A stretch of 64,000 bases of DNA from Marinobacter subterrani. Its GTDB lineage: Bacteria; Pseudomonadota; Gammaproteobacteria; Pseudomonadales; Oleiphilaceae. Made by a program: the position numbers and the translations under genes. Shown here one piece after another: positions 31,593-61,585 of this stretch. The stretch covers positions 2,790,001-2,854,000 of the forward strand of contig NZ_LFBU01000001.1 in the NCBI RefSeq assembly GCF_001045555.1. The letters run 5' to 3'. Below the pieces are notes generated by a model that saw nothing but the letters and a program-made list of their open reading frames with translations, ran no database searches and had not been told where the DNA came from. Position 1 is the first letter of the stretch. Each line of letters begins with the position of its first letter.

Positions 31593-31708
31593 GTGGGCAG
31601 CGGGGAGAAGGTTTCCAAAACACGCTCCTTACGGCACGTCCATGTGACGCTTGGGCTCCGCCATCCCTGGCTCCGCACAGTTTTGGAAACCTTCTCCCCG
31701 CTGCCCAC
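31593..31708 (+). repeat. Long inverted repeat with conserved 60-bp core, copy 1
   Basis: Perfect 28-bp arms at 31593-31620 and 31681-31708 (inner ends ...TTTCCAAAA / TTTTGGAAA...) enclose a 60-bp core (31621-31680). The core starts CACGCTCCTTACGGCACGTC and ends GGCTCCGCACAG. The core matches copy 2 (61500-61559) at 58 of 60 positions, yet the arms are unrelated outside the inner CCAAAA/TTTTGG. It sits 10 bp after the permease stop. Confidence 0.9.
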
Positions 31709-31736
31709 CCGTATTCCATGCAAGCCTCAAATCTTT

Positions 31737-31767
31737 GTAGGTCGGATTAGCAAAGCGTAATCCGACA
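31737..31767. repeat. GTAGGTCGGATTA-type short palindromic extragenic repeat
   Basis: GTCGGATTA-(8 nt)-TAATCCGAC, a family dispersed in many proteobacterial genomes. Two more copies lie at 35207-35239 and 35279-35311. Confidence 0.8.
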
Positions 31768-31792
31768 GACGCCCGGACACCCGTCAATCAAC

Positions 31793-32464
31793 CTAAGAGC
31801 CCGTCAAATCCAGACCACGAAGCCGCCCAAGCAATCCATCGACCAACCCGGGTTCGCCCACCAGATCATCCCACTGCAGCCGGGCGGGCTTGCCATCCAG
31901 GTACCACAACCGATTCGCCAGGATCTCTGCATCCCCACCATCATGGGTAACACAGATCATCGCCATATTCGGATGCGAATCCAGAATCCCGGCAATCAGC
32001 GCTTTGAGCTCACTCGCCATTACCGGATCCAGCGAGGCAAACGGCTCGTCCAGCAACAGTAAATCGGGCTTAACCGCCAGGCAGCGGGCCAGGGCCGCCC
32101 TTCTGGCCATGCCCAGAGAAAGCTGGTCGGGGAAGTATTGGCCGTACCCGGAAAGCCCCACCTGACGCAGAAGAATCTCGGCCTCCCTGTCGCTGGCGCC
32201 GACCAGGCGCAGATTGGCACTCAAGGTTCGCCAGGGCAGCAGGCGGTGTTCCTGGAACAGATAACCCACCCGAAGTTTGTCACGTCCGATGACCGCTCTG
32301 TCCGGGACGGTTTTGTCGAGGCCGGCAATGGCGTTCAGCAACGTGGTTTTGCCGATGCCGGAAGGCCCCAGCAGGCAGATGTGGTCACCCTGGTTTATGG
32401 TGGCGAAGATTTTCCCGAGCACCGGCTGGCCGAAGTCGCGGCCGGTGAGTCTGAGTTCAAGCAT
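31793..32464 (-). CDS. ABC importer ATP-binding protein (nitrate/sulfonate/taurine type)
   Basis: A 223-residue ATPase with Walker A GPSGIGKTT, Q-loop LFQEHRLLPW, signature LSLGMARRAALARCLA and Walker B LLLLDEPFASLD. Sequence style matches SsuB/TauB. It overlaps the permease gene by 8 bp and forms an importer operon with it and the binding protein. The substrate is not identifiable from sequence. Confidence 0.88.
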   Translation of the reverse strand: MLELRLTGRDFGQPVLGKIFATINQGDHICLLGPSGIGKTTLLNAIAGLDKTVPDRAVIGRDKLRVGYLFQEHRLLPWRTLSANLRLVGASDREAEILLRQVGLSGYGQYFPDQLSLGMARRAALARCLAVKPDLLLLDEPFASLDPVMASELKALIAGILDSHPNMAMICVTHDGGDAEILANRLWYLDGKPARLQWDDLVGEPGLVDGLLGRLRGLDLTGS

Positions 32465-33233
32465 GGGCCGTCTCCGGCTGGCGCCAGCGGCTGGATCGGC
32501 GTTCGAGGGGCTGGAGGATGGCCAGTTCGATCAGCTGGACAACGGCAATAAACGCCAGGCTGTAGGCGAGGATGGCGGCGACGTCGAACACCTGGAAAGC
32601 CATGTGCAACCGGAAGCCGACGCCGCTGGAGCGGCCCAGCAGTTCGACCACCAGGACGATTTTCCAGATCAGGGCCAGGCCGCCCCGGATGGCGGCCATG
32701 AGGTAGGGAAACAGTTGCGGTACCCAGACTTCACGGAATCGCTGCCAGCGGGTGAGCTCATAGACGGTCGCCATTTCTTCGAGCCGGTAATCGAGGCTGC
32801 GGGCGCCTTCCCGGACGGTCACGGCGACGTTGGGCACTTTGTTGATGACCACGGCCATCACGGCGGCCACTTCCACCAGGCCGAACCAGACGTACATCAG
32901 GATGATGGTGACCAGGGCTGGCAGATTCAGTAACAGCACCAGCAGGGGGTCGAACAGGGCGTTGGTGGTTTGCGACCGGCCCATGACAATGCCGATGGTG
33001 GTGCCGAGCAGCATGGAGAGGATAAAAGCTACGACGACGCGCCCGAGTGTCGCGCCCAAATGGTGCCAGAGGTCGCCGGAGGCGGATTCCCGCAGCAGGG
33101 TATCCAGTACGTTCAGGGGTGTGGGCAGCAGGGGCGATTGAATCAGCCAGGCAATCAGCGACCACACCAGGACAAACGACGGCAATACCACCCAGTAGCT
33201 CCAGGCCGGCGGGCGACCTGAGCGAATACTCAT
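32457..33233 (-). CDS. ABC importer permease (nitrate/sulfonate/taurine type)
   Basis: A 258-residue inner-membrane protein with the BPD_transp_1 fold, about six helices. The EAA-like cytoplasmic loop is around EEMATVYELTRWQRFREVWVPQLFPYLMAAIRGGLALIWK. It overlaps the binding-protein gene by 4 bp and the ATPase gene by 8 bp, so the three are coupled. Confidence 0.88.
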   Translation of the reverse strand: MSIRSGRPPAWSYWVVLPSFVLVWSLIAWLIQSPLLPTPLNVLDTLLRESASGDLWHHLGATLGRVVVAFILSMLLGTTIGIVMGRSQTTNALFDPLLVLLLNLPALVTIILMYVWFGLVEVAAVMAVVINKVPNVAVTVREGARSLDYRLEEMATVYELTRWQRFREVWVPQLFPYLMAAIRGGLALIWKIVLVVELLGRSSGVGFRLHMAFQVFDVAAILAYSLAFIAVVQLIELAILQPLERRSSRWRQPETAHA

Positions 33234-34252
33234 GGCTGCCTCCGGTACAACAGGCGCGCCGGCATCAGGTTGCCCGGGTCCGCTCCGGTAAGCGCCAGCA
33301 ACTGCTGCAACTCGGCAATGCGTCGGTCGTTGAGCGGCGCAGGTGTGCCGGCAACAAAGCCTTCCCGCAGCGCGGTAAAAACGCCTTCTGCCGGGTCGCC
33401 CATCAGGGGCCGCAGCCGCTGCCAGTGGGTTGGGTTGTCGGCCAGTTCCTCTTTCGCCTGCTGCAGCGAGTTGGCAAAGCGGTCGATGAGTGGGCGATGG
33501 TTCCCGGCCCAGCCGGCCGGAAACACATAACCCAGAACCGGCAGGTTACGGTCCAGATCCATGGCGCTGAGCAGGTCCGCCATGCCAAAAGCGGAGCGCC
33601 AGCCGCCCGCCCCCTTGAGGCGGGCCGCAAAATGCCAGTAGGTAACGATGACATCGACCTGGCCGCGCTTCAGGGCCTGGCTCAACAGGGGTGGCGCCGC
33701 AAACTGTACGTCGGTGGCAGCTGACAGATTTATGCCCTGCCCGGCGGCAACCTTCTTCAGCAGTATCCAGCCCTTGCTGTCCGGCCCGCCGGCGACACCA
33801 ATGCGCTTACCGGCCAGATCGGCCACTGAGCGGATGCCGGAGTCCTCGGCCACCACGATATCGCCAATTTGGGAGGAGAATGGCACATAGAGATAGGGCG
33901 TGCCGGCCCGGAACCGGGACTGCGCCCACAGCAGGTCTGCCACCGCGCCGTTCACCGATCCGCTGGTCACCGCGAGGCGGGAGGCGGGCAGATTGGCGAC
34001 GAGCGTCAGCTCGAGCCGGTAACCGTTCTTACGATCCAGCCCACGATGCAGGATGTGGTTCAGTTCCCAGTGCGCGGTGCCGAACTGCAACACGCTGACA
34101 GACAGCGCTGGCAGGTTTCCGGGATCACCGTCACTGCTGTGTGCCGGAGCGGCCAGTACAGGCAGCAGCAGAAGTGCAACACCGATCCGTAAGAAACGGG
34201 CCACGGGCAGGAAGGATTGCAGAACGGTCTTTATTATTGGGTGCTGGTTCAT
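33230..34252 (-). CDS. ABC importer substrate-binding protein (SsuA/TauA/NrtA-like)
   Basis: A 340-residue periplasmic binding protein. The ATG at 34252 gives a signal sequence ending near AAPAHSSDGD; the ribosome site GGAAGG is unusually close. The mature core has VSVLQFGTAHWELNHILHRGLD and AGKRIGVAGGPDSKGWILLKK, as in nitrate/sulfonate/taurine binding proteins. It is divergent from the response-regulator gene, with the variant PQQ-regulon element in the shared 169-bp promoter region, which suggests co-regulation with alcohol oxidation. Confidence 0.82.
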   Translation of the reverse strand: MNQHPIIKTVLQSFLPVARFLRIGVALLLLPVLAAPAHSSDGDPGNLPALSVSVLQFGTAHWELNHILHRGLDRKNGYRLELTLVANLPASRLAVTSGSVNGAVADLLWAQSRFRAGTPYLYVPFSSQIGDIVVAEDSGIRSVADLAGKRIGVAGGPDSKGWILLKKVAAGQGINLSAATDVQFAAPPLLSQALKRGQVDVIVTYWHFAARLKGAGGWRSAFGMADLLSAMDLDRNLPVLGYVFPAGWAGNHRPLIDRFANSLQQAKEELADNPTHWQRLRPLMGDPAEGVFTALREGFVAGTPAPLNDRRIAELQQLLALTGADPGNLMPARLLYRRQP

Positions 34253-34287
34253 CCTTCCACGATACGAACCCGCCCGCCGGGCAAGAA

Positions 34288-34315
34288 TAGTACTTTGGTG
34301 CCTGTTTTTTGGTGC
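34288..34315 (+). promoter_or_regulatory. Putative regulon element in the divergent region before the LuxR regulator
   Basis: TAGTACTTTGGTGCCTGTTT then TTTGGTGCG. It matches the pqqA upstream site over GTACTTTGG and TTTTGGTGC. It could act on the regulator gene (autoregulation), the importer operon, or both. Confidence 0.5.
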
Positions 34316-34421
34316 GATGGTCGCATTCAACCCGGGATGCAGATGGCGTGTAATGGAATCATCACAATAATAAACAGAGGATCGGAACCGACTCCGGTGA
34401 TTCTCTGCACAGGAGGCCGCC

Positions 34422-35195
34422 ATGCTGAACGAGCTCGATGCCGCACTCTCTTCCGAAACCCGCTATCATGATTCGGAAGCCATTCCCGACACTGAAAACA
34501 GACAGGTAGAAACATCCATGGAGCCGGCTTACAAGATTCTGATTGCCGACGACCACCCGCTGTTCCGGGAAGCCATCAGCAGCGTGATCGCTTCCGGTTT
34601 TGCCGGCAGCGAAATCATCGAAACGGCGGATCTGGACAGCGCCCTGGAACTCACCCGCGAAAACGACGACCTGGACCTGATCCTGCTGGACCTCAACATG
34701 CCCGGCATGCACGGGCTGAACGGCCTGATCACCCTGCGTAATGAAGCACCCACCATTCCGGTGGTGATCGTGTCTGCCGAGGAAGACAAACAGGTGGTGC
34801 TGCAGGCCATCACCTACGGCGCCTGTGGCTTCATCACCAAGTCCTCACCCCGGGCCCAGATGACCGAGGCCATCCAGCAGATCCTCAACGGCAATGTGTA
34901 CCTGCCATCTGACATCATCCGCACCGGCAAGGAAAGCAGCAGCCGACGCAGCCGGCACGAAGACAACCCGATCTCGCCGGAACTGCTCAACTCCCTGACC
35001 CGCCGCCAGTTGCTGGTGCTGGAGCGCATGTCCAAGGGCGAATCCAACAAGCAGATCGCCTACAACCTGAACATCGCCGAAACCACGGTAAAGGCCCACG
35101 TCTCGGCCATCCTGCGAAAGCTCGGGGTGCACAACCGGGTGCAGGCGATTCTCTCGGCCAGCGATGTGGATTTCAGCCAGTATTTGAAGCGTTAA
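34422..35195 (+). CDS. erdR: LuxR-family (NarL-type) response regulator, ErdR-like
   Basis: A 257-residue response regulator. The receiver domain spans about residues 35-155, with DDHPLF acidic pocket, phospho-acceptor Asp90 in [13 protein letters not shown] and Lys in [12 protein letters not shown] GerE/LuxR DNA-binding domain at about 185-245 has [31 protein letters not shown] five bases before the ATG at 34422 supports the long start; an internal ATG at 34518 would give the bare receiver. Sequence style resembles ErdR, a regulator of ethanol oxidation in Pseudomonas. It is near the NahK-like kinase. Confidence 0.85.
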
Positions 35196-35206
35196 GGTAG
35201 CGTATT

Positions 35207-35239
35207 TGTCGGATTACGCCTTTGGCTAATCCGACCTAC
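35207..35239. repeat. GTAGGTCGGATTA-type repeat, second copy
   Basis: TGTCGGATTACGCCTTTGGC then TAATCCGACCTAC, just after the regulator stop. A degenerate half copy follows at 35241-35257. Confidence 0.8.
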
Positions 35240-35278
35240 ATTGCTAATACGACCTACCTTTTGAGCAATCATCCCCGC

Positions 35279-35311
35279 GTAGGTCGGATTAGGCGCAGCC
35301 GTAATCCGACA
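35279..35311. repeat. GTAGGTCGGATTA-type repeat, third copy
   Basis: GTAGGTCGGATTAGGCGCAG then CCGTAATCCGACA, opposite in orientation to the copy at 35207. The two face each other between convergent genes. Confidence 0.8.
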
Positions 35312-35324
35312 CCCATTGTCAATC

Positions 35325-37586
35325 TCAGCTTCTCAGCAAATGACTCAGCGCGCTGCGCAGCTTCAGCGGCTTTACCGGCTTGTTCATCAGTAGATGCCCG
35401 AGTTCCCGGATGTGCTGCTTGAGCTCGTTGGTGTAGTTGGCGGTAATCACCACCACCGGTGCCGGATAGCGGCGTCGACCGTTAATCCGGGCCACCAGGT
35501 CCACGCCATTCTCGTCGTTATCCAGGTGGTAATCCGCCAGAATCAGGTCCACGGCACTGCGGGCCGGGTCAAGCTGGCGCTCGAGGTCATCCAGCGACAC
35601 CGCGGTCACCACCTGGCAGTCCCAGCCTTCCAGCAGGGTTTTCATGCCCTGGCAGATCGCCCGGTCGTTGTCGATCACCCAGATCCGCGCGCCACCCAGG
35701 CCGCTGTCGAAGGAAACCGTGCGATTCTGATCCGACTCCGGTCGTCTGGGCTGCAGTCGGCCAATGGGCACACGCACGCTGAACACGGAACCCCGGCCTT
35801 CAACGGAAGATACCGTCACTTCATGGCCGAGCATGCGGGATATCTTGTCGACGATGGCAAGGCCGAGACCAAGCCCCTTGTCCGGTTGGGAGCCGGCCGG
35901 ACGGATCCGTTTGAATTCCTGGAAGATCTCGGTGAGTTTGTCTTCGGGAATGCCGGGGCCGGTATCCCACACCTGCAACAAAACATGATCACCACCGCGT
36001 CGGCAGCCCAACAGAATCCGGCCCCTCCCTGTATAGCGGATGGCATTAGTCAGAAAATTCCGGAGTATCCGCGCCAGCAACTGGGAATCCGATTTCACGA
36101 TCGCAGAACTGGCAACAAAATCCAGCCGGAGTCCCTCGGCCATGGCCATTTGCCGGAACTCCCGGGCGATATTGTTGAGCAGGTCCCGCAGGTCAAACGC
36201 CGTGACATCGGGCTTGATCACACCGGCGTCCAGCTTGGAAATATCAACCAGAGTACCCAGCAGGTTTTCCACATCATCCAGGGAGGTGCTGACCGAGCGC
36301 ACCAGGCCCTCGGCCTTGGGCCCGAAAGACTGCTCCAGCAGGGCACTGGTAAACAGTCGCGCCGCGTTAAGAGGCTGCAGCAGGTCGTGGCTGACCGCCG
36401 CCAGAAACTTGGTTTTGGACAGGTTGGCCCGCTCCGCTTCCAGCTTGGCGTCTCTCAGTCGCGCCTCCACTGCCGCCCGCTCGGTGATTTCCTGGCGCAG
36501 CTGGTTGTTCAGGCCGGTCAGTGCCGCCGTGCGTTCTTTCACCCGGCGCTCCAGGTTATCGTAGGCCTGCTCCAGGGCCAGCGCGGTCTTGCGCCGGTCG
36601 GTAATATCACGGATCAGCACGAAGAAACCGATGATATCGCCCTGCTCGTCGAAATTGGGCACGTAGGAGCGCAGCATGTAACGCACCCCGCCCTGCTCCC
36701 CGGTTTCCTCGAACTCGAAGGTGACGTTATGGCCATCCATGACATCCAGGATCTGGGGCAGCAGGCGCTGGTACAGCTCTGGCGAGTGCACATGATCCAG
36801 GCGCTTGCCCAGGGGCGACTCGCCCTTGCGGCCGTACCAGGCCTCGTACACCTTGTTGCAGAAGTGGATGGTCATGTCGGCACCGACGTAGGCAATCAGC
36901 GCCGGCACGTGGTCGGTGACCACGCGTATCCAGCGCTCACTCTCTTCAAGCGCCTTGATGCGGCGGGCCATTTCGCTGTTCTTGACCTCGGTGATGTCGG
37001 AATAGAGCACTACCAGCCCGCCTTCCCGGGTGGGTCTCTCTGTCATCTGCACCCAACGGCCATTGGACAGCAGGAACACCACGCCTTCGGAATCGGGGTG
37101 GCTGTGTTCTTCGGCAATCAACCCGGAGACAACCGCCTGGGATTTGACCTCGGCGATACTGGTACCGGGCCCGGGTACTGCCAGCCCGGCCTGGCGCCAG
37201 TAACTGCGGAACCGGCTGTTGCTCTGGATCAGGCAATGCCGGTGGTCAAACAGTACAAAACCGTCCGCGATGCTCTCAATGGCGTCACTCAGGCGCTGGC
37301 GGGTGGTTTCGGCTTCCTCCCTGGCGCGACTCAGGGCCTTGTTACTGCCCTTCAGTTCCTCCATGGCCTGGTTCAGGGCCTCGGTGCGCTCGCGCACCTG
37401 TTCGGCCAGCACCACGGAATGCTCGAACGCCGCATAGGGCTCGGGTTTATGGGCCGAGCCGGACTCCACCCGCACGATCAGTGCATCGCGAATCCGCCGC
37501 AGGCGCTCATTTTCCGCCTCAAGCTCGGCAATGCGCCGGTCCCGGTCGTCTGTCTCGGGGATGTCAGTCTTGTCCGGAACGGACAT
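35325..37586 (-). CDS. nahK: Hybrid sensor histidine kinase, NahK/ErcS'-like
   Basis: A cytoplasmic hybrid kinase of about 753 residues: N-terminal coiled coil (residues ~15-110), at least two PAS domains (one around ALNEATTRQRLSDAIESIADGFVLFDH, one around RWIRVVTDHVPALIAYVGAD), HisKA with AAVSHDLLQPLNAARLF, HATPase_c, and a receiver with LILADYHLDNDENG. ATG 37586 overlaps the NosP-like gene's end by 23 bp; a TTG four codons upstream is possible. NahK in P. aeruginosa is partnered with the NO sensor NosP encoded just upstream, the same arrangement as here. Confidence 0.85.
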   Translation of the reverse strand: MSVPDKTDIPETDDRDRRIAELEAENERLRRIRDALIVRVESGSAHKPEPYAAFEHSVVLAEQVRERTEALNQAMEELKGSNKALSRAREEAETTRQRLSDAIESIADGFVLFDHRHCLIQSNSRFRSYWRQAGLAVPGPGTSIAEVKSQAVVSGLIAEEHSHPDSEGVVFLLSNGRWVQMTERPTREGGLVVLYSDITEVKNSEMARRIKALEESERWIRVVTDHVPALIAYVGADMTIHFCNKVYEAWYGRKGESPLGKRLDHVHSPELYQRLLPQILDVMDGHNVTFEFEETGEQGGVRYMLRSYVPNFDEQGDIIGFFVLIRDITDRRKTALALEQAYDNLERRVKERTAALTGLNNQLRQEITERAAVEARLRDAKLEAERANLSKTKFLAAVSHDLLQPLNAARLFTSALLEQSFGPKAEGLVRSVSTSLDDVENLLGTLVDISKLDAGVIKPDVTAFDLRDLLNNIAREFRQMAMAEGLRLDFVASSAIVKSDSQLLARILRNFLTNAIRYTGRGRILLGCRRGGDHVLLQVWDTGPGIPEDKLTEIFQEFKRIRPAGSQPDKGLGLGLAIVDKISRMLGHEVTVSSVEGRGSVFSVRVPIGRLQPRRPESDQNRTVSFDSGLGGARIWVIDNDRAICQGMKTLLEGWDCQVVTAVSLDDLERQLDPARSAVDLILADYHLDNDENGVDLVARINGRRRYPAPVVVITANYTNELKQHIRELGHLLMNKPVKPLKLRSALSHLLRS

Positions 37587-38844
37587 CAGGCTGGCCAATG
37601 ACCACCCCCGTAAACGTCTGGTTTATGTGCATGCCGTCAAACTGCTCGCCGTAGGTGTTGAAGCCAATCACCTTGTGATGGCGCAGGAACTCCGAGACCG
37701 CTTCCACCTCCCCGGTCAGCTCCGCTTCCAACCGGCGCAGGAAGCAGTCGCAGCCAATGGTCACCAGCGGTGGCCCCACCACCCGTTCGGCCGCCTCGAT
37801 CTGGCTGCGCACGCTGTCGAGCAGGGATTCCGGCGCCATGGCCGTCATCACGATGCCGGTTTCCACCGCGCAGTAGAACGTCAGGCTCTTGTCCGGATTG
37901 ACCCGCTGCACGGAGCGGACAAAATAGTGGCCGCCGATCTTTACCCCCATGGGCCTGAGCGCGAAGATTCGGCGATCCAGGGCATCCACATCCACGCCAA
38001 CGGCCCGGGCATAGGCCTCGGCGGCAGGTTCCGCATTCAGTTCGTATACGGTCCGGCTTGCCGGGCAGGCCTCGGTCACCACCAGTTTTTCACTGCGCTC
38101 GACCATGTGGTGGGTGGAAAACACCCGGAAATCCAGCGGCGTGTTCACCAGCAACACGGTGGCCGCACCAGTATGGAACTGGCCGTCATAAAACACATGG
38201 GTATTGGCCAGGCGCTCATCATCGCCGGCCGAGCCGCCAAACTGGGGAATGCTGCCGAGGGCCGAGTTGAGGGTAGCCAGAACCAGTTCTTCGCGGCTCG
38301 ACAAGCCATCCAGCAGCGTGATGGCAAAGGTGTTGCCCTTGACCGGTGCCAACCGGGCATCCCGGCAGGTGGCAAGCAGGTCGTCGATCACCCCCTGGGC
38401 ATCCTGCAGGGTGAAACGTTCCAGCTCCCGGATCAGCGCGCAGTCGATGGCAAAGTAACGCCTATCAAACCCGATGGCGGTAATGCATCCGCGGCCGTAA
38501 CCCTCCGGCGTGATTTCTCCGGCGGATGTGCAGCCGCAAACCCGCACCCCCGGGAAGCTGTGCTCAAGGGCCTCGCCCAGCCAGCCCAGATCGTATTCCG
38601 CCGAACAGAAAAACAGCACACAGCCGAGATGCTCATGGCTGAGCTGGCTGGCAAGATTGGTGGCGGCCAACATCGGATCGCGAACGCTGGAGCTCGCTAC
38701 CCGGACCGCGGGCAGGGTCGTCGCTGGCTTCATAAACGCGGATCCCGGAAACGGATGACTTTTCACCGATTCTACGGCATCCGCAAACGCAGCCAATGCG
38801 ACTTCAGTGCTTTTAATCGGCGCGCCAAAATGATCGTAAGCCAT
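37564..38844 (-). CDS. nosP: FIST-domain protein, NosP-like nitric-oxide sensor
   Basis: A 426-residue protein with FIST_N (around SSVRDPMLAATNLASQLSHEHLGCVLFFCSAEYDLGWLGEAL and GCTSAGEITPEGYG) and FIST_C (around GIVMTAMAPESLLDSVRSQIEAAERVVG, FNTYGEQFDGMHINQTFTGVVIG). In P. aeruginosa NosP binds haem and NO and inhibits NahK. Here too it is encoded immediately upstream of, and overlapping, the NahK-like kinase. The ATG at 38844 follows AGGAGG at 11 bases; more distant in-frame starts lack a site. The haem ligand is not assigned from this sequence. Confidence 0.8.
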   Translation of the reverse strand: MAYDHFGAPIKSTEVALAAFADAVESVKSHPFPGSAFMKPATTLPAVRVASSSVRDPMLAATNLASQLSHEHLGCVLFFCSAEYDLGWLGEALEHSFPGVRVCGCTSAGEITPEGYGRGCITAIGFDRRYFAIDCALIRELERFTLQDAQGVIDDLLATCRDARLAPVKGNTFAITLLDGLSSREELVLATLNSALGSIPQFGGSAGDDERLANTHVFYDGQFHTGAATVLLVNTPLDFRVFSTHHMVERSEKLVVTEACPASRTVYELNAEPAAEAYARAVGVDVDALDRRIFALRPMGVKIGGHYFVRSVQRVNPDKSLTFYCAVETGIVMTAMAPESLLDSVRSQIEAAERVVGPPLVTIGCDCFLRRLEAELTGEVEAVSEFLRHHKVIGFNTYGEQFDGMHINQTFTGVVIGQPDVRSGQD

Positions 38845-38971
38845 TGATTGAACTGCCTCCTGAATCAATGTCTGGTGGCGCTGCCGGTTTCCATGGGCGC
38901 AAACCGGCACTTTAGTCTTAGGCAGACCGGCGCCAGGGGGGCTTCCTGGCTCCCCGGGCACCAGTCAATGC

Positions 38972-40075: not shown

Positions 40076-40236
40076 AGTTCCCCCGGTTGTTTTTGGAAAT
40101 CTGGGATCAGAGCAGCGGGTTATCCCGGCGCTCCAGGCGTGGTCTGTCGCCTGAATTCCATGGTCGGTGATGGAGGGAAAGGGGGAAATGCGCCCAGGGA
40201 GCAGGTTTTCTGCTTATTTGGGAGGCATTGAAAATC

Positions 40237-40255
40237 AAACTTTGGGATTACGACC
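40237..40255 (-). promoter_or_regulatory. Weak match to the PQQ-regulon element before the porin gene
   Basis: AAACTTTGGGATTACGACC, similar to CACTTGGTAGTACGACC at the exaA site. It lies about 170 bp upstream of the porin start, overlapping the extreme 3' side of the intergenic region. Confidence 0.25.
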
Positions 40256-40266
40256 AGCCGGAAAGA

Positions 40267-51302: not shown

Positions 51303-51315
51303 GGGTCATTCCCTT

Positions 51316-53875: not shown

Positions 53876-53881
53876 TGGTTG

Positions 53882-55201: not shown

Positions 55202-55227
55202 ACACTCTCCTGCAGTCATTGGCCTGC

Positions 55228-55827
55228 TCAGTGCAGGGTCGGCGCTTCAGACGCCGGCTTCTCCGGAGCATTGAATTCGGTAAACACCGCCAGCGCTCCC
55301 AGTCGAATATATTCGGTAATCTCCAGCAGTTGCTGTTCGCTCTCGTCATCCGCGTCTTCATCGCTGGAAAGCTGGCTGATCGCCACCATATCCTCGATCA
55401 GCTCGCGAATCTCGTCCGGAGCCTGCCCCAACGATTCGCCGGCAGACAGGGCCATCCCTTCCAGGAACCCCCGCACCCAGGCAACCAGGGCCTCAAGGCG
55501 TTGCTCAATGGCATAATCGTCGTCGGGCAGTAAAGGATGGAAACTCATGTCTGCCGATTTCAAGAGCGCCAGGGTCTGTTCGTACGCTTTATTCATGAAC
55601 GGGGCGAGATCGTCCGAGTCTTCGGCGGCGCTTTCCGGCAAGCCCATGTGCTCACAGGCCATTGCCAGCCAGTCCGGTTCGTCAATGCGGGATCCCGCGG
55701 CCAGCCGACCGCACAGGGCTCCGTGCAGTTCGGAGGGGTGGCTGAACGCCTTGTGGGCAGTAAAGACATTGGCCCAGCGCTCGAATTCAGCGGCCCGGGC
55801 GGCACCGGAAGTGTCGGTTTCTGACAT
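55228..55827 (-). CDS. ygfB: UPF0149 family protein (YgfB-like)
   Basis: A 199-residue acidic, helical protein of the UPF0149/YgfB family, with WVRGFLEGMALSAGE and LVAWVRG-type cores. It lies upstream of pepP, as in E. coli and Pseudomonas. In Pseudomonas YgfB influences transcription of a peptidoglycan-recycling-related gene; here function is inferred only by family. The chosen ATG (55827) is the first with family-like sequence after it. Confidence 0.88.
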   Translation of the reverse strand: MSETDTSGAARAAEFERWANVFTAHKAFSHPSELHGALCGRLAAGSRIDEPDWLAMACEHMGLPESAAEDSDDLAPFMNKAYEQTLALLKSADMSFHPLLPDDDYAIEQRLEALVAWVRGFLEGMALSAGESLGQAPDEIRELIEDMVAISQLSSDEDADDESEQQLLEITEYIRLGALAVFTEFNAPEKPASEAPTLH

Positions 55828-56046
55828 GAAACAGGCGAATCCTGTGTTGTTGAATGAGGTCTCTATCCTAGCATTCAGGCGCCCCCAAGGCACTTGTTGA
55901 TGTGGCTGGCAGGACCGGGTTGGGGGTGATGGGCAATGAGTGATCTGCATCACGCGGGCGCCGCAATGACAACCCTGTAAATTGACCGACTTAGAGTCCA
56001 CACTTATAGTTACTTGCAATTACCTCAAACCACTGTTGGGCACCTC

Positions 56047-56253
56047 ATGGAACAGTCCGAAGTACAGGCATTAGCGGACAAGCTGGACAGGCTGATAGAG
56101 CACTGCCAGAAACTGGAGCGGGACAACGCCATACTGCGCGACCTGCAGGATGACTGGAACAGGGAACGGGCCCAGCTAATGCAGAAAAACGATCACGCAA
56201 AACACAAGATCGAAGCCATGATCAGCCGCCTTCGGGCCCTGGAGCATCACTGA
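56047..56253 (+). CDS. TIGR02449 family / ZapB-like coiled-coil protein
   Basis: A 68-residue, largely coiled-coil protein (EVQALADKLDRLIEHCQKLERDNAILRD). It is always found before zapA in gammaproteobacteria. It probably takes part in cell division with ZapA, but this is inferred from context. Its stop overlaps the zapA start by one base. Confidence 0.82.
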   Translation: MEQSEVQALADKLDRLIEHCQKLERDNAILRDLQDDWNRERAQLMQKNDHAKHKIEAMISRLRALEHH

Positions 56254-56549
56254 TGGCACAGCAATCCACCACCCTCGAGGTGAAGATTCTCGACAAGGAA
56301 TACCTGGTTGCCTGCCCTGAGGAAGAACAGGAGGCCCTGATCAGGGCCGCACGGCACCTGGACAGCAAGATGCGGGAAATCCGCTCGGGCGGCAAGGTAT
56401 TCGGCACCGAACGCATCGCGGTGATGGCCGCCCTGAACATCACCCATGAAATGCTTGAGCGGGACACCATGTCCGACGCCACCAGCACAATACTGCGAGC
56501 GATGGACAACAAACTGGACGGCGCCCTGGGCAATGGCTCCGGCCAGTAA
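56253..56549 (+). CDS. zapA: Cell division protein ZapA
   Basis: A 98-residue FtsZ-ring stabiliser. The N-terminal globular part TTLEVKILDKEYLVACPEEEQEALIRAARHLDSKM is the ZapA signature. The C-terminal helix forms the coiled-coil tetramer. It is immediately followed by the 6S RNA gene. Confidence 0.95.
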   Translation: MAQQSTTLEVKILDKEYLVACPEEEQEALIRAARHLDSKMREIRSGGKVFGTERIAVMAALNITHEMLERDTMSDATSTILRAMDNKLDGALGNGSGQ

Positions 56550-56574
56550 ATCCGCAGAGAATCTCAGACAGGTG

Positions 56575-56605
56575 TTGCAATCGGCCCCGACCCTGCCCGT
56601 ATAAT
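56575..56605 (+). promoter_or_regulatory. Sigma-70-type promoter of 6S RNA
   Basis: TTGCAA (56575-56580), 19-bp spacer, TATAAT (56600-56605), placed seven or so bases before the 6S RNA 5' end. Confidence 0.7.
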
Positions 56606-56611
56606 GGATCA

Positions 56612-56770
56612 ACTTCCTGGGCTGTTCGCTATGGTCGGATACGTCCTCGAGCCGATGCGCATTACCCAGGTGGCTACTTCAGGGCATTGTGAGCACGTCC
56701 CCGTCAGGGGAAAGCCTAATATGTCACAGCGGCCACCGACCTTGAACTTTGGGTTCAAGGGCAACATCCG
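56612..56770 (+). ncRNA. ssrS: 6S RNA
   Basis: Global RNA polymerase sigma-70 holoenzyme regulator. The closing arms pair around CTTGGGC-like termini: 5' ACTTCCTGGGCTGTTCGCTA and 3' GACCTTGAACTTTGGGTTCA. Internal GGTCGGATACGTCCTCGAGCCGATG and CCACCGACC give the long bulged duplex. Position between zapA and fau is diagnostic. Ends are approximate. Confidence 0.85.
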
Positions 56771-56796
56771 ATAACGGCAGCCCGGGAAGCTTTATT

Positions 56797-57432
56797 TTGA
56801 GCCAGTTTATCGAGCCCCAACCGTTTCAATCCCATCCGGACACCCTCTCACGCAGTGAACTTCGCAAACGTCTGCGCCAGCACCGACGCGCGCTAAGCTT
56901 CGAGCAGCAACAGCAGGCCGCCGAGAACCTCGCCCTGAACCTGCTGAAGAACCCGGATCTGCACCGTGCCCGGCACATTGCCCTCTATCTGCCCAATGAC
57001 GGCGAGATTGATCCGCACGTTTACCTGGACATCGCGCGGCGCAAGGGCATCCAATTCTACCTGCCGGTCCTGCACCCGATTCACGAAGGCAGGCTGGTGT
57101 TCAGCCCCTACTACGACGACGTGGAACTGACCGCCAACCGCTTCGGCATTCCCGAGCCAGCATTCAGCAAAGGCCTGCGACGCCCGGCATGGGCTTTGGA
57201 TGCGGTACTGTTTCCGCTGGTGGGTTTTGACGAGCAGGGCGGAAGGCTGGGAATGGGCGGCGGCTTCTACGACAGGACGTTCGCCTTCAGCCGCATACGG
57301 CCAAGGCTGGCGCCCAAGCTGATTGGTCTGGCCCACGACTTCCAGAAGCTAAAAAGGCTGCCGGTGGCGCCCTGGGATGTGCCCCTGCACAGCGTGGTCA
57401 CCGATAAGCAGCGCTACCGGTTCAGGGGCTGA
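56797..57432 (+). CDS. fau: 5-formyltetrahydrofolate cyclo-ligase
   Basis: A 211-residue enzyme converting 5-formyl-THF to 5,10-methenyl-THF, often co-transcribed with 6S RNA. Motifs: SRSELRKRLRQHRRALS, HIALYLPNDGEIDPHVYL, and VGFDEQGGRLGMGGGFYDR, the ATP and folate region. The TTG at 56797 is preferred because an ATG at 56749 lies inside the 6S RNA and GGGAAG sits just before the TTG. Confidence 0.92.
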   Translation: MSQFIEPQPFQSHPDTLSRSELRKRLRQHRRALSFEQQQQAAENLALNLLKNPDLHRARHIALYLPNDGEIDPHVYLDIARRKGIQFYLPVLHPIHEGRLVFSPYYDDVELTANRFGIPEPAFSKGLRRPAWALDAVLFPLVGFDEQGGRLGMGGGFYDRTFAFSRIRPRLAPKLIGLAHDFQKLKRLPVAPWDVPLHSVVTDKQRYRFRG

Positions 57433-57575
57433 TTCGCCACCTGGGCGGAGCCAACAACGGCGTTATTGCTCGCCGCCTGGTCGTCAGGAGCGCGAATGGA
57501 TGTGAAACCCGTTATCACAAGGCCTATCGCAAAAATCAGCATGATAGCGCGAATGATATCCGGCTTGCCGCCCAT
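57414..57575 (-). CDS. Small single-pass membrane protein, 53 aa (putative)
   Basis: Minus-strand ORF of 53 codons: MGGKPDIIRAIMLIFAIGLV is a basic N-terminus followed by a single hydrophobic helix, and then a polar tail. AGGA lies ten bases before the ATG. It overlaps the fau end by 19 bp and lies convergent to it. I do not recognise it. Confidence 0.45.
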   Translation of the reverse strand: MGGKPDIIRAIMLIFAIGLVITGFTSIRAPDDQAASNNAVVGSAQVANQPLNR

Positions 57576-57724
57576 GACGCATAATCCTGTTTCAGATGAA
57601 GGTAAATATCAGGTAAATCAGAGAGCTATTCTTGACATCAAGAATCAGACGAAAGACTAACACCTATCCGGGTTTTTACAATTTTTGACAGGTTAAATTT
57701 CAGTAAGCTTTTGCAAGACTCACC

Positions 57725-57754
57725 GAACCGGGGAGGCAGGCCCCTCCCCGGTTC
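57725..57754 (-). terminator. 12-bp perfect hairpin downstream of ilvA
   Basis: GAACCGGGGAGG and its complement with a 6-nt loop, 10 bp after the ilvA stop on the minus strand. There is no clear T-run, so it may stop RNase progress rather than terminate by itself. Confidence 0.55.
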
Positions 57755-57764
57755 CCGCACCCAA

Positions 57765-59300
57765 CTATGACGACCTGGCGTTGCCCTGCCCCAGAAACAG
57801 CTGATAAGCCTCGTTGTCCGTCATGTTCTCGTAGCGGAAACCGACCTTATCAAGCATCTTCTCAAAGTCCGATACCTCGTCATCCTCGACCTGGGCACCC
57901 AACAGGACGCGGCTGTACGCCGCACCATGATTGCGGTAGTGGAACATGGAAATGTTCCAGCGGGTGCCCAGTGACATCAGGAACTTCAGCAACGCCCCGG
58001 GGCGCTCCGGGAACTCGAACTGGAAGACCTTTTCGTTGGTGATGCTCGGGGCGTGGCCACCCACCATGTGGCGTATGTGCTGTTTGGCCATATCGCTGTC
58101 GGTGAGGTCGACCACCGAATAGCCCGTTTCGCGCAGGTCCTGGACCAGTTCCTCACGGCCATGGCCGCCCGCCGCAATCTGGATACCGACAAAAATGGTG
58201 GCATTGCTGGCATCGGCATAGCGGTAGTTGAACTCGGTGATACTGCGCTTGTGCAGGGCATTGATGAAGGTCTTGAACGCGCCCGGCTTCTCTGGAATGG
58301 TCACCGCCAGGATGGCTTCACGCCTCTCACCCACCTCTGTGCGCTCAGAAATATAGCGCAGGCGGTCAAAGTTCATGTTGGCACCGCTCAGGGTGGCAAC
58401 CAGGTTTTCGTTCTCGATCTTCTCCCGCTCGATGTACTTCTTGATGCCTGCCACACCCAGCGCACCGGCCGGCTCAGCAATGGAGCGGGTATCCTCGAAC
58501 ACATCCTTGATCGCCGCGCAGATTTCATCGGTGGAGACGGTGATCACCTCATCCACATGGTCCTTACAGATTTCCCAGGGGTACTTGCCGATCTGTTTGA
58601 CTGCCACGCCGTCTGCGAAGATGCCCACTTCGTCCAGCACTACCCGTTTGCCCGCCTTCATGGCAGCCTGCAGGCAGTTGGAATCCTCCGGTTCAACGCC
58701 GATCACCTTGATTTCCGGGCGAAGATACTTGATGTAGGCCGCCATGCCGGCAATCAGACCGCCACCACCAACGCAGATAAAGATGGCGTGGATCGGCTTG
58801 CTGAACTGCCACATGATCTCCATGGCCACCGTGCCCTGGCCGGCGATCACATCCGGGTCATCATAGGGCGGAATATAGGTATAACCGTGTTTCTGGATCA
58901 GCTCCTGGGCATGGGCGGCGGCTTCGTCAAAGGCATCGCCCCTGAGAACCACCCTGGCACCATGATCCCGCACCGAGCGCACCTTGATTTCCGGCGTGGT
59001 CTGGGGCATCACGATCACCGCCTTGATGCCCAGTTTTTTCGCCGCCAGAGCCACGCCCTGGGCATGGTTGCCCGCCGAGGCACAAATCACGCCCCTGGCT
59101 TTCTGCTCTTCGGAAAGCTGGGCAATCCGGTTGTAGGCGCCGCGAATCTTGAAGGAAAACACCGGCTGAAGGTCTTCGCGCTTGAGCAGAATATTGTTGC
59201 CAAAGCGCTTGGACAGACTACGGGCTTCAGTCAGGGGTGTTTCGATGGCCACGTCATAGACGCGCGCATCGAGTATCTTCTTGATGTAGCGTTGCGGCAT
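57765..59300 (-). CDS. ilvA: Threonine ammonia-lyase, biosynthetic
   Basis: A 511-residue PLP enzyme deaminating threonine to 2-oxobutyrate for isoleucine biosynthesis. The PLP lysine is in VFSFKIRGAYN, with SAGNHAQGVALAA and VGGGGLIAGMAAYIK for phosphate binding. Two C-terminal ACT-like regulatory domains (~330-511) show it is the feedback-regulated biosynthetic form. The ATG at 59300 starts MPQRYIKKIL; upstream extension is not credible. Confidence 0.96.
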   Translation of the reverse strand: MPQRYIKKILDARVYDVAIETPLTEARSLSKRFGNNILLKREDLQPVFSFKIRGAYNRIAQLSEEQKARGVICASAGNHAQGVALAAKKLGIKAVIVMPQTTPEIKVRSVRDHGARVVLRGDAFDEAAAHAQELIQKHGYTYIPPYDDPDVIAGQGTVAMEIMWQFSKPIHAIFICVGGGGLIAGMAAYIKYLRPEIKVIGVEPEDSNCLQAAMKAGKRVVLDEVGIFADGVAVKQIGKYPWEICKDHVDEVITVSTDEICAAIKDVFEDTRSIAEPAGALGVAGIKKYIEREKIENENLVATLSGANMNFDRLRYISERTEVGERREAILAVTIPEKPGAFKTFINALHKRSITEFNYRYADASNATIFVGIQIAAGGHGREELVQDLRETGYSVVDLTDSDMAKQHIRHMVGGHAPSITNEKVFQFEFPERPGALLKFLMSLGTRWNISMFHYRNHGAAYSRVLLGAQVEDDEVSDFEKMLDKVGFRYENMTDNEAYQLFLGQGNARSS

Positions 59301-59451
59301 AACAGTTCCGGCTTTTGGTTGATTTGTGGTTGATGGTCGGCTGGGAAAAACCCACAGTGTAGAAAGTTTGCACGGCAGCCGTCTATAAGCATACTGCCCG
59401 ATAGCGCTATAATGAGTAACACACCAGCCAGAATTGCAGAGGGAACTTCCC

Positions 59452-60132
59452 ATGACTCAGGACGAACTGAAAAAAGCCGTCGCCAAAGCCGCCATTGACT
59501 ACATCGCGCCCCGCCTTGATAGCGACAGCATTATCGGAGTTGGCACCGGAAGCACGGCCAACTTTTTCATCGACATGCTCGCCGACCTGAAGACCGACTT
59601 TGACGGCGCCGTGGCCAGTTCCGAGGCCAGTGCCCAGCGCCTTAAAAGCCATGGCATTCCGGTATACGACCTCAACAGCGCCGGCAACCTGGAGTTCTAT
59701 GTGGATGGTGCCGACGAAACCAACGAACGCCTGGAGCTGATCAAGGGCGGCGGCGCTGCACTGACCCGGGAGAAAATCGTGGCGGCGGTGGCGAAAACCT
59801 TCATCTGCATTGCCGATGACTCCAAGATGGTGGGCATTCTGGGCAAGTTCCCCCTGCCCGTGGAAGTCATCCCCATGGCCCGCAGCTATGTGGGCCGGGA
59901 GATCGTCAAACTCGGTGGCGACCCGGTCTACCGCGAGGGTGTCACGACCGACAATGGCAACGTTATTCTCGATATCCACAACATGGACATCTCCCAACCG
60001 ATCCGGGTTGAGGAAAGGCTGAACAACATAGTCGGCGTGGTCACCAACGGGCTGTTCGCCCGCCGCCGCGCTGACTTGCTGTTGCTGGGCACCAAAGACG
60101 GCGTCAAGAGCATCAGCGCCAGGGGCGCCTGA
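59452..60132 (+). CDS. rpiA: Ribose-5-phosphate isomerase A
   Basis: A 226-residue isomerase of the pentose phosphate pathway. Motifs: [40 protein letters not shown] and [18 protein letters not shown] precedes the ATG. A TATAAT at 59408-59413 is a probable -10. A terminator follows the stop. Confidence 0.97.
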
Positions 60133-60162
60133 TCCGCCAGGAAGACAGGAATCGTCCGGCAG

Positions 60163-60188
60163 AGCTGGCCTTTCGGGCCAGCTTTTTT
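60163..60188 (+). terminator. Rho-independent terminator downstream of rpiA
   Basis: AGCTGGCC-TTTC-GGGCCAGC with TTTTTT, 30 bp after the rpiA stop. Confidence 0.9.
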
Positions 60189-60207
60189 ATTGCCTGAAGA
60201 CTTACAT

Positions 60208-60225
60208 ACCAAGCGCTTGCTTGGT
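60208..60225. promoter_or_regulatory. Palindromic operator-like site upstream of the acyl-CoA dehydrogenase
   Basis: ACCAAGCGCTTGCTTGGT: outer ACCAAG/CTTGGT arms plus an inner 10-bp palindrome CAAGCGCTTG. Its position about 55 bp before the start and its form fit a TetR-family repressor of acyl-CoA catabolism, but the regulator is unknown. Confidence 0.45.
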
Positions 60226-60279
60226 GCCAGAAATTGCGCGACACTGCTCCCAATGATTCCGATCGCAGGGAGTTTCACC

Positions 60280-61419
60280 GTGTCCGATTACTTCAACGAA
60301 ACCCACGAACAGGTGCGCCAGGCCGCCCGAAAGTTCATCGGCACTCATGTTCTGCCCCACATCGACGACTGGGAAGAAGCGGGTGAATTCCCCCGGGAGC
60401 TCTACAAGAAGGCCGGTGACGCTGGCTTGCTGGGCATCGGCTTTCCCGAGGCCCTGGGAGGCATTGGCGAAGGCGATATTTTTCTGAAGGTGGCCGTTTC
60501 CGAAGAGCTGATGCGCTCCACGTCGGGCGGTCTGGTTGCCGGCCTGGGCTCCCTAGATATTGGCCTGCCGCCAGTCGCCAAATGGGCAAAACAGGAAGTC
60601 CGCGAGCAGGTGGTCCCGCCCGTGCTGAGGGGCGAAAAAATCGTGGCCCTCGCCGTCACCGAACCCGGCGGCGGTTCCGATGTGGCCAACCTCAAAACCC
60701 GGGCCGTGCGGGAGGGCGATCACTACACCGTCAACGGCAGCAAGACGTTCATCACCAGCGGCATGCGCGCCGATCACTACACCGTTGCCGTACGCACCGG
60801 CGGCGAAGGCCATGGCGGCATCAGTCTGCTACTCATCGACCGTGACATGCCGGGCTTCTCCAGGGGCCGGAAGCTCCGGAAAATGGGCTGGTGGGCCAGC
60901 GACACCGCCGAGCTGTTCTTCGAGGATTGCCGAGTCCCTGCAGACCGCCTGATCGGAGCTGAAAACGCCGGCTTTATCGCCATTATGAGCAACTTTCTGG
61001 CCGAGCGCCTGAGCCTGTCCATCATGGCCTACATGACTGCCCAGCTCGCCTACGAGGCCGCTCTCGACTACAGCAAGCAGCGCCAGGCCTTTGGCCGGAG
61101 CATTGCCGGCTTCCAGGTGACGCGGCACAAGCTGGTGGATATGGCGACCCAGATCGACATCGCCCGGGAATACACCTACCGTTGTGCCGCCCTGATGCAG
61201 GCCGGCACGAACCCCATCAAACAGGTGGCCATGGCCAAGAATTTCTCAGTGGATGTCTGCGAAAAGGTCACCCGGGAAGCCGTGCAGCTGTTCGGTGGCA
61301 TGGGGTATATGCGGGAAACCGTGGTTGAACGGCTCTACCGGGATGCCAGGATTCTCTCCATCGGCGGCGGCACCACGGAGATCATGAAGGAGCTGATTGC
61401 CAAGCAGCTCCGGCTGTAG
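60280..61419 (+). CDS. Acyl-CoA dehydrogenase family protein
   Basis: A 379-residue FAD enzyme. It has the signature segments LAVTEPGGGSDVANLKTRAV, GSKTFITSGMRAD, and LAYEAALDYSKQRQAFGRSI, and the C-terminal GGMGYMRETVVERLYRDARI. GTG 60280 with GGGAG is preferred over an ATG at 60253. It probably performs alpha-beta dehydrogenation of an acyl-CoA. The exact substrate is unknown; the catalytic base is not obvious. Confidence 0.88.
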   Translation: MSDYFNETHEQVRQAARKFIGTHVLPHIDDWEEAGEFPRELYKKAGDAGLLGIGFPEALGGIGEGDIFLKVAVSEELMRSTSGGLVAGLGSLDIGLPPVAKWAKQEVREQVVPPVLRGEKIVALAVTEPGGGSDVANLKTRAVREGDHYTVNGSKTFITSGMRADHYTVAVRTGGEGHGGISLLLIDRDMPGFSRGRKLRKMGWWASDTAELFFEDCRVPADRLIGAENAGFIAIMSNFLAERLSLSIMAYMTAQLAYEAALDYSKQRQAFGRSIAGFQVTRHKLVDMATQIDIAREYTYRCAALMQAGTNPIKQVAMAKNFSVDVCEKVTREAVQLFGGMGYMRETVVERLYRDARILSIGGGTTEIMKELIAKQLRL

Positions 61420-61473
61420 TTGCTCTGCCTGGGAGATATACTTGGGCGCTGATAGCCCGATAGCTTCGAGTAT

Positions 61474-61585
61474 GGGACTGTCGGGAACCTCTCCCAAAAC
61501 ACGCTCCTTGCGGCACGTCCATGTGACGCTTGGGCTCCGCCATCCATGGCTCCGCACAGTTTTGGGAGAGGTTCCCGACAGTCCC
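61474..61585 (+). repeat. Long inverted repeat with conserved 60-bp core, copy 2
   Basis: Perfect 26-bp arms at 61474-61499 and 61560-61585 around a 60-bp core (61500-61559) differing from copy 1 at two positions. Beyond the inner CCAAAA/TTTTGG the arms are unlike those of copy 1. It lies 54 bp after the acyl-CoA dehydrogenase stop. Confidence 0.9.

What the first reader, a model, noticed from the sequence alone, without database searches (positions are those of the whole stretch)
31593..61585. Repeat family with a conserved 60-bp core and unrelated, perfectly self-complementary arms
Copies at 31593-31708 and 61474-61585 share the core at 58 of 60 bases, but the 28-bp and 26-bp arms differ completely apart from the inner CCAAAA/TTTTGG. 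Each arm is a perfect complement of its own partner. The arms therefore co-vary, as expected if the stem is selected or is rebuilt at each insertion, while the core is kept. Ordinary REP or terminator repeats conserve the stem, not the loop. Both copies sit just downstream of a stop codon on the plus strand. The element may be a non-autonomous mobile unit that writes its own arms, or a structured 3'-UTR RNA.
Basis: partly seen in the sequence, partly recalled or inferred. Interest (0 to 1): 0.8.

Follow-up and report, generated by a model that had tools for sequence, protein, structure and literature searches.

The report
Self-rewriting hairpins carrying CsrA-like sites
This marine bacterium carries about a hundred scattered copies of a hairpin-shaped element that shows two docking sites typical of the gene regulator CsrA and sits on a long stem whose two sides keep changing yet still match.

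Summary
The two window copies, and a third it missed (61690-61800), belong to a family of 110 places (60 bits or more) in this Marinobacter genome. Related copies occur in 69 of 369 gammaproteobacterial genomes sampled. Each copy is a near-perfect 27-28 bp stem of variable sequence around a 52-58 nt core. The core holds two hairpins whose loops read CANGGANG on one strand only, like CsrA/RsmA sites and Rfam's TwoAYGGAY family (RF01731, function unproven). In a core-blind scan 232 of 253 inverted repeats had exactly two such loops on one strand; none had any on the other. Stem mismatches are G.T rather than A.C (54 to 1, 28 others, in 106 own-genome copies), so the fold of the CANGGANG strand matters. 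At orthologous sites stem pairs change on both sides, at about the flank rate and spectrum, pointing to replication template switching plus selection on the fold. All 16 close pairs here are divergent. Best reading: a dispersed, probably CsrA-binding RNA element of TwoAYGGAY type. Transcription and CsrA binding are untested; mobility is not shown.

The parts
31593..31708 (-). Element 1: arms 31593-31621 and 31680-31708, core 31622-31679 (type A). Informative (CANGGANG) strand is minus
   Evidence: model R1 hit at 31597-31704 minus, 105.9 bits; RF01731 hit 32.0 bits minus, below cut-off
31660..31671 (-). Element 1 hairpin 1, GCCAGGGATGGC on the minus strand (loop CAGGGATG, 31662-31669)
   Evidence: sequence; alignment A1
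31635..31646 (-). Element 1 hairpin 2, CACATGGACGTG on the minus strand (loop CATGGACG, 31637-31644)
   Evidence: sequence; alignment A1
61474..61585 (-). Element 2: arms 61474-61500 and 61559-61585, core 61501-61558 (type A). Left partner of a divergent pair with element 3
   Evidence: R1 hit 61476-61583 minus, 105.6 bits; RF01731 35.2 bits minus, below cut-off
61539..61550 (-). Element 2 hairpin 1 (loop CATGGATG, 61541-61548)
   Evidence: sequence
61514..61525 (-). Element 2 hairpin 2 (loop CATGGACG, 61516-61523)
   Evidence: sequence
61690..61800 (+).
   Evidence: I1; z -8.8; R1 hit 61692-61796 plus, 91.6 bits; no RF01731 hit, 31.1 bits in the smaller search
61586..61689 (.). Spacer between the divergent elements 2 and 3
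30776..31582 (+). ORF ending 10 bases before element 1 (ABC-transporter permease by recall, not searched)
31793..32464 (-). ORF converging on element 1 (ABC-transporter ATPase by recall, not searched); element 1's CANGGANG strand is the sense downstream strand of this gene
60190..61419 (+). ORF ending 54 bases before element 2 (acyl-CoA dehydrogenase by recall, not searched)
61952..62479 (+). ORF starting about 150 bases after element 3 (inorganic pyrophosphatase by recall, not searched)

Best explanation
A dispersed structured-RNA element of the TwoAYGGAY kind. A long near-perfect stem holds two hairpins, 23-25 nt apart, each showing a CANGGANG loop that fits one binding surface of a CsrA/RsmA dimer. 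Shown here by sequence: the architecture, its multiplicity, the strand asymmetry, paired change of stems at fixed loci, strong keeping of the loops. Inferred: the CANGGANG strand is transcribed; the RNA binds the cell's CsrA/RsmA (two genes present) and acts as a distributed decoy or local landing pad; stem complementarity is restored largely by replication template switching (one arm copied from the other), with selection keeping the loops and removing stem changes that the folded strand cannot tolerate.
For: Core-blind scan: 232 of 253 inverted repeats have exactly two CANGGANG on one strand, 0 of 253 have any on the other; about ten core types with rewritten hairpin stems keep both loops. 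Alignment A1 (75 sequences, picked by long arms and two loops): all 25 outer pairs change on both sides, covariation score 0.650 against 0.157 shuffled, 0 of 500. G.T above A.C: 108 to 13 in 185 copies, 54 to 1 in 106 own-genome copies, 74 to 10 in 136 copies of loci L291-L439, which include more Marinobacter; 20 to 0 in the 46 own copies where no called neighbour reads that strand. RF01731 finds 48 own-genome places, all 48 at R1 places and on the same strand (compared by eye), and passes its cut-off on locus L293 of this family. Two CsrA genes. Loop spacing 23-25 nt in 106 of 106 (14-40 allowed) lies within the 10-63 nt over which one CsrA dimer bridges, optimum above 18 (PMC7652899, passage). 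SELEX consensus RUACARGGAUGU (same paper, passage) matches hairpin 2. CsrA was proposed for TwoAYGGAY in PMC4333381 (passages). Template switching: in 26 one-per-site orthologue pairs 43 of 416 stem positions changed on both sides (10.3%) against 208 of 1928 flank sites (10.8%); transversions 18 of 43 against 96 of 208; core inverted between like arms in L177, a kind of change described in PMC8794818 (passages).
Against: No transcript data. No excess of sigma-70-like promoters on the 5' side (best score above 9 in 10 of 106, against 13 of 106 on the 3' side), and orientation to neighbouring genes is near even, so it is unclear what would transcribe the antisense copies. CsrA co-occurrence is weak: 64 of 69 element-bearing genomes have a CsrA hit against 313 of 369 overall (read by eye); the five without are G144, G205, G236, G332, G479, of which G332 is 98% complete. 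No own-genome copy reaches the RF01731 cut-off (best 42.6 of 43), and on element 1 a plant miRNA hairpin model scores as well on the other strand (35.2 bits), so the long stem alone earns much of such scores. A type-A variant lacks the second CANGGANG (L073, L096, L174, L175, L178). The core inversion changes which strand carries the loops at a fixed site. In the closest orthologue pairs 32 of 75 changed positions were one-sided (16 G.T, 2 A.C, 14 other), so intermediates exist. Pooled, non-independent pairs at 88% flank identity or more show fewer transversions in double changes (51 of 135) than in flanks (295 of 604). The G.T excess does not by itself separate RNA from single-stranded DNA.
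Confidence: 0.6

Rival explanations
1. A mobile single-stranded-DNA hairpin (REP or MITE-like): a transposase or recombinase recognises the folded CANGGANG strand; loops are its signature, stems are rebuilt by copying, and close pairs are divergent because insertion is oriented.
For: 110 places in the genome; orientation to genes near even; 16 of 16 close pairs divergent, as inverted REP pairs are (recall); weak same-direction motifs CTCCAAAGTT and CACCAAA outside both arms; the G.T excess would also suit a single-stranded DNA hairpin.
Against: No clear empty site seen at the two window sites; most shorter alleles carry remnants (L222 shows none that I recognise). Copies keep stem complementarity at sites shared by species, which an element folding only when it moves need not do. 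Of the two Y1-transposase hits in the genome one lies among 8 GTAG-type REPs, a foot these elements lack, and the other has neither within 1.5 kb. No replication-strand bias (47 of 92 on plus on C1, 9 of 18 on C2). The match of the loops to the CsrA consensus is unexplained here.
Confidence: 0.2
2. Selection alone: each stem is under strong selection for RNA pairing and compensates by ordinary double mutations; no template switching.
For: G.T tolerated, A.C not; loops and the two junction pairs nearly invariant; one-sided intermediates exist in the closest pairs (32 of 75 changed positions); transversions 51 of 135 double changes against 295 of 604 flank changes in the pooled close pairs.
Against: Double changes run at or above the flank per-site rate (43 of 416 against 208 of 1928; 132 of 480 against 462 of 2221; 103 of 288 against 229 of 917) and their transversion share (42, 49, 60%) is near the flank's (46, 56, 67%), positions 7-22. 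Compensation through G.U should be slower and transition-rich. Core inversion (L177) is a template-switch type event. Caveats: no tree; flank stretches that aligned badly were skipped (14, 15, 17); pairs with unalignable arms (4, 10, 9) were dropped.
Confidence: 0.12
3. Mutation only: palindromes kept perfect by template switching, with no function; copies spread as selfish or accidental repeats.
For: Near-neutral rate and spectrum of pair changes; frequent partial loss.
Against: Does not explain loops kept in about ten core types, core divergence of 38 in 1407 against 208 in 1928 in flanks for the closest orthologue pairs, or G.T 54 to A.C 1, which arm copying alone would leave even.
Confidence: 0.06
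4. Bidirectional transcription terminators.
For: Very stable stems; in the multi-genome set 20 of 74 loci lay between convergent genes against 4 between divergent ones.
Against: No T-run on either side in the flank profile; the own-genome set shows no convergent excess (22 against 20 divergent of 106); loop conservation is unexplained.
Confidence: 0.02

Closest known systems
TwoAYGGAY RNA (Rfam RF01731, clan CL00106; Weinberg et al. 2010, PMC2864571, one table row seen)
   Same: External stem enclosing two hairpins with AYGGAY-type loops on one strand; RF01731 finds 48 places in this genome and passes its cut-off on a copy in another gammaproteobacterium (L293; 1 of 20 loci given, 3 more below cut-off). 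Its own listed hits over the class are often several per genome, and 4 of 4 listed pairs within 350 bp are divergent (G405 two, G294, G499; 7 places scored per genome).
   Different: No Marinobacter copy passes the cut-off; the outer stem is a uniform near-perfect 27-28 bp; 110 places in this genome; joints and core types differ from the Rfam model (alignment).
CsrB/RsmZ-type CsrA-sequestering sRNAs
   Same: Hairpin loops with the CsrA consensus, spacing fit for bridging by one dimer (PMC7652899, passages).
   Different: Two sites per unit spread over 110 places instead of many sites in a few regulated sRNAs (the latter by recall); no promoter signal found.
Stems maintained by template switching (Monttinen and Loytynoja 2022, PMC8794818; abstract, passages and section 8 read)
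   Same: Perfect stems kept by double substitutions, and loop inversion.
   Different: They studied RNA genes, rRNA above all; here many short dispersed loci can be compared with their own flanks.
REP/BIME and RAYT systems (recall)
   Same: Interspersed intergenic palindromes, inverted pairs.
   Different: No GTAG foot in the flank profile, stems not conserved, loops conserved; the genome has a separate GTAG family.

Membership tests
TwoAYGGAY RNA (RF01731) | Covariance-model score at or above the gathering score (43 bits) | tested here: not met
   Own genome: 0 of 48 hits over it, best 42.6 (control genomes 1 of 14 with a hit, none over); window elements 1 and 2: 32.0 and 35.2. Met by L293 of the same R1-defined family (45.2), so the family touches RF01731 but the Marinobacter copies lie below.
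TwoAYGGAY RNA (RF01731) | Two hairpins with AYGGAY-type loops inside an external stem | tested here: met
   the loops are CANGGANG, a looser form of AYGGAY
TwoAYGGAY RNA (RF01731) | Same strand as the model | tested here: met
   48 of 48 hits are at R1 places on the same strand (compared by eye)
CsrA/RsmA-binding RNA | ANGGA in hairpin loops matching RUACARGGAUGU / CANGGANG | tested here: met
   232 of 253; RUACARGGAUGU from PMC7652899; the CANGGANG form by recall
CsrA/RsmA-binding RNA | Binds CsrA | not testable with these tools
   needs a binding assay or CLIP
CsrA/RsmA-binding RNA | Host has CsrA | tested here: met
   2 genes in G000; 64 of 69 element-bearing genomes
CsrB/RsmZ-type sRNA gene | Own promoter | tested here: inconclusive
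   no excess of sigma-70-like sites upstream; other promoter types not scanned
REP/RAYT | GTAG foot and flanking RAYT gene | tested here: not met
   no GTAG in the flank profile; of two Y1-transposase hits one sits among GTAG REPs, another family, with one element about 1 kb off; the other has no element within 1.5 kb
Transposable element | Clean empty sites and target-site duplication | tested here: inconclusive
   only the two window sites were examined (60 loci, 4 of them with one flank only); remnants in most short alleles, none recognised in L222; flank motifs are not perfect duplications
Intrinsic terminator | T-run after a G+C-rich hairpin | tested here: not met
   flank profile of 185 copies

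The most novel reading that the evidence does not exclude
Gammaproteobacteria carry a distributed CsrA/RsmA buffer: about a hundred twin-site RNA hairpins in this genome and related ones elsewhere, often as divergent pairs transcribed outward, whose long stems are continually rewritten by arm-to-arm copying during replication while the protein-binding loops are kept; cores are exchanged and inverted between stems as cassettes.
Probability: 0.3. Interest if true: 0.85.

Novelty: new variant of a known kind. Interest (0 to 1): 0.66.

Why it matters
If transcribed, the 110 places would offer about 220 ready-made CsrA-type hairpins in one genome, to a regulator known mainly for a few dedicated decoy RNAs (recall); that would change how Csr/Rsm titration is modelled in these bacteria. 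Rfam's TwoAYGGAY family, reported in 2010 without a function, would gain a high-copy relative with a testable partner protein. And many independent stems beside neutral flanks give a direct natural test of a long-standing question: how perfect RNA stems keep pairing, by two-step compensation or by single template-switch events.

Tried and rejected
Rejected: a 3'-UTR element of the upstream plus-strand gene (wrong strand, orientation near even); intrinsic terminator; RAYT-driven REP; arms made only at insertion (orthologues change in place). Led nowhere: promoter scan, replication-strand bias, text search for the core sequence (0 papers), literature on Marinobacter palindromes or a CsrA-binding repeat (listings only, nothing on point in the rows shown). 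I saw nothing in print on dispersed TwoAYGGAY or CsrA-site repeats in the searches in one open-access library; two searches showed 15 of 130 and 12 of 248 papers, and subscription papers are not in it.

Flawed or limited steps: the gene-context count let reading frames run open at the cut beside the element and is replaced. disagree on an excess at convergent genes (20 to 4 of 74 loci against 22 to 20 of 106 copies); I trust neither far, since genes were called by length and codon GC only. Circularity: the non-type-A rows of alignment A1 and the sets were picked by two CANGGANG and by arms, so loop keeping must rest, whose loci were themselves gathered by likeness to the type-A core. Of its 21 repeats without two motifs I read by eye 6 as spans between two neighbouring cores, 6 as another repeat family (GTAGGTCGGATTAG), 7 as type-A variants, 1 as a relative with a changed loop (L006), 1 as unrelated (L148). 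One search printed 12 loop clusters; at least two (L122, L208) are known types with a shorter-called stem, hence 'about ten'. In one search I printed only repeats with at least one motif. In one search, 35 of 124 exact hairpin-2 pattern hits did not meet my criteria for arms plus two loops, and 21 motif pairs had no arms.
Full report
WHAT IS THERE. The two copies are as described: perfect 29- and 27-nt arms around cores that differ at two positions, folding with z-scores of -9.4 and -10.4. A third element, 61690-61800, lies about 100 bp beyond the second, in the opposite orientation and with another core. The genome (G000, two contigs, 4.45 Mb) gives 42 BLAST matches to the core; 37 of the 40 loci fetched have complementary arms, L026 has arms around an enlarged core, L029 and L033 have none. 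A covariance model built from 75 copies (R1) finds 110 places of 60 bits or more in the genome (118 matches in all at E up to 0.1).

ANATOMY. Read on the strand that carries the loops: a 27-28 bp outer stem; hairpin 1 closing on CANGGANG; a joint with AGC; hairpin 2 closing on CANGGANG; a return with GCG; the stem again. In 185 copies pairing is above 96% up to position 19, about 85-95% to position 26, 76% at 27 and 43% at 28, so the stem has a rather fixed length. The outer stem is not free of sequence preference: CTTTCCAAAAC nearest the core and a GGG block at positions 16-18. Weak, same-direction motifs follow on both sides (CTCCAAAGTT left, CACCAAA right). In a core-blind search for inverted repeats over the 228 loci then held, 232 of 253 had two CANGGANG on one strand, 6 had one, 15 none, and none had any on the opposite strand. 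About ten core types result, e.g. hairpin 1 as GGGCCA..TGGCCC, GCATTGCCA..TGGCAATGC, CAAAATCA..TGATTTTG. The loci were gathered by likeness to the type-A core, so other types are under-sampled there; among 106 own-genome copies 47 cluster with type A.

THE STRAND. Mismatches in the arms are not symmetrical. With all mismatches penalised alike in finding the arms, G.T on the loop strand against A.C is 108 to 13 in 185 copies (orthologues counted more than once), 54 to 1 with 28 other mismatches in the 106 own-genome copies and 74 to 10 with 55 others in 136 copies of loci L291-L439, some of them Marinobacter. A change that is G.T on one strand is A.C on the other, so the fold of the loop strand is what is tolerated or kept. 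The excess holds where no called neighbouring gene reads that strand (antisense tandem and divergent contexts, 20 to 0 in 46 copies, crude gene calls). This fits RNA made from the loop strand everywhere, or single-stranded DNA; it does not fit a plain mRNA 3' UTR. That A.C is rarer than even the other mismatches is not explained.

CHANGE IN PLACE. Orthologous copies, found by flank similarity, keep complementarity while the stem letters change, and so do the two window sites across the genus. In one-pair-per-site comparisons (positions 7-22) at 88-99% flank identity (26 pairs, 4 more dropped for unalignable arms), 43 of 416 stem positions differ on both sides, 16 by G.T, 2 by A.C, 14 by other mismatches; flanks differ at 208 of 1928 sites. 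At 82-88% (30 pairs, 10 dropped): 132 of 480, with 13 G.T, 1 A.C, 3 other, against 462 of 2221. At 70-82% (18 pairs, 9 dropped): 103 of 288, with 9, 2 and 9, against 229 of 917. Transversions make up 42, 49 and 60% of double changes against 46, 56 and 67% in flanks. In the pooled, non-independent pairs they are 51 of 135 against 295 of 604 (flank identity 88% or more) and 316 of 620 against 748 of 1420 (less). If each stem mutation is either undone or copied to the other arm, the pair rate should equal the neutral site rate with the neutral spectrum, close to what is seen; compensation through G.U should be slower and transition-rich. The G.T excess says selection also acts. The cores differ at 38 of 1407 sites in the closest group.

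CASSETTES AND LOSSES. At the element-2 site some species have core type A and others another core (type C) between related arms (L201, L202, L205-L207, L209, L210, L218 against L199, L200, L203, L204, L211-L216). At the element-1 site L177 has the core turned round between arms equal to those of L175, the loop inversion that template switching predicts (PMC8794818; abstract, passages and section 8). L026, L181 and L185 carry an extra hairpin-rich insertion inside the hairpin-2 loop. Several species retain only fragments (e.g. L179, L180, L182, L184, L190-L195, L221, L223, L225, L226, L228), which I read as deletions; L222 shows no remnant that I recognise. Four of the 60 loci gave one flank only.

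PAIRS. All 16 neighbouring pairs within 350 bp in this genome are divergent, loop strands pointing outward (13 on C1, 3 on C2). Between 350 and 1600 bp on C1 orientation is mixed (6 divergent, 4 convergent, 2 tandem). In loci L291-L439: 4 divergent, 1 tandem, 1 convergent. The listed RF01731 hits over the class show 4 of 4 pairs within 350 bp divergent (G405 two, G294, G499), and one tandem pair in G226 at 357 bp (read from the table, 7 places scored per genome). No promoter signal was found on the 5' side.

RANGE AND KIN. In a first search with a 72-nt core, 24 of 24 same-genus relatives and 0 of 13 genomes of other families had matches. R1 matches 69 of 369 gammaproteobacterial genomes and 62 of 272 genera (at most 10 places scored per genome). 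Copies there have cores such as CGTCGGCAGCAGGGATGCTGCCGCCGAG and stems of 18 to 43 bp. Of Rfam, RF01731 is the family that fits: window elements 2 and 1 score 35.2 and 32.0 bits, below the cut-off of 43; 48 own-genome places, best 42.6; 45.2 on L293, the one of 20 loci over the cut-off, with three more below. Other models that only ask for a long hairpin, such as plant miRNA precursors and Ysr224, also score weakly on some copies, below their cut-offs. Over the class RF01731 itself is found in 24 of 369 genomes, 15 over the cut-off, and six of the 24 are R1 genomes (G000, G209, G322, G354, G427, G437). So this is a branch beside the described TwoAYGGAY RNAs, for which CsrA binding was proposed and called work in progress (PMC4333381, passages).

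MECHANISM. Most likely a CsrA/RsmA-binding RNA module: the loops equal the CsrA consensus, two per unit at 23-25 nt (106 of 106), and CsrA bridges sites 10-63 nt apart (PMC7652899, passage); the genome has two CsrA-family genes. Co-occurrence adds little: 64 of 69 element genomes have CsrA, 313 of 369 overall. Whether the RNAs act as decoys or locally is open.

Noticed in passing
window 35207-35311 and 31737-31768: A second interspersed palindrome, GTAGGTCGGATTAG...CTAATCCGAC, with a GTAG foot like REP sequences; it also surrounds a Y1-transposase-like gene in this genome (L496).
   Followed up: partly
window 56611-56792: 6S RNA, 91.1 bits.
   Followed up: no
window 30671-31723 minus and 61246-61557 minus: Open reading frames that run into the elements and share the peptide GWRSPSVTWTCRKERV; likely spurious proteins that gene callers may annotate from these repeats.
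   Followed up: no
L026, L181, L185, L033: A hairpin-rich insertion (with GCCGAGCGCTTATGAAGCG or its like) in the hairpin-2 loop of several elements: an enlarged core or a nested repeat.
   Followed up: partly
L329, L333, L350, L356, L360, L368, L393, L395: Metagenome bins titled Klebsiella pneumoniae hold copies of the pattern; I suspect the titles are wrong.
   Followed up: no
own-genome pairs; RF01731 pairs: Close element pairs are divergent in 16 of 16 cases in this genome; cause unknown.
   Followed up: partly
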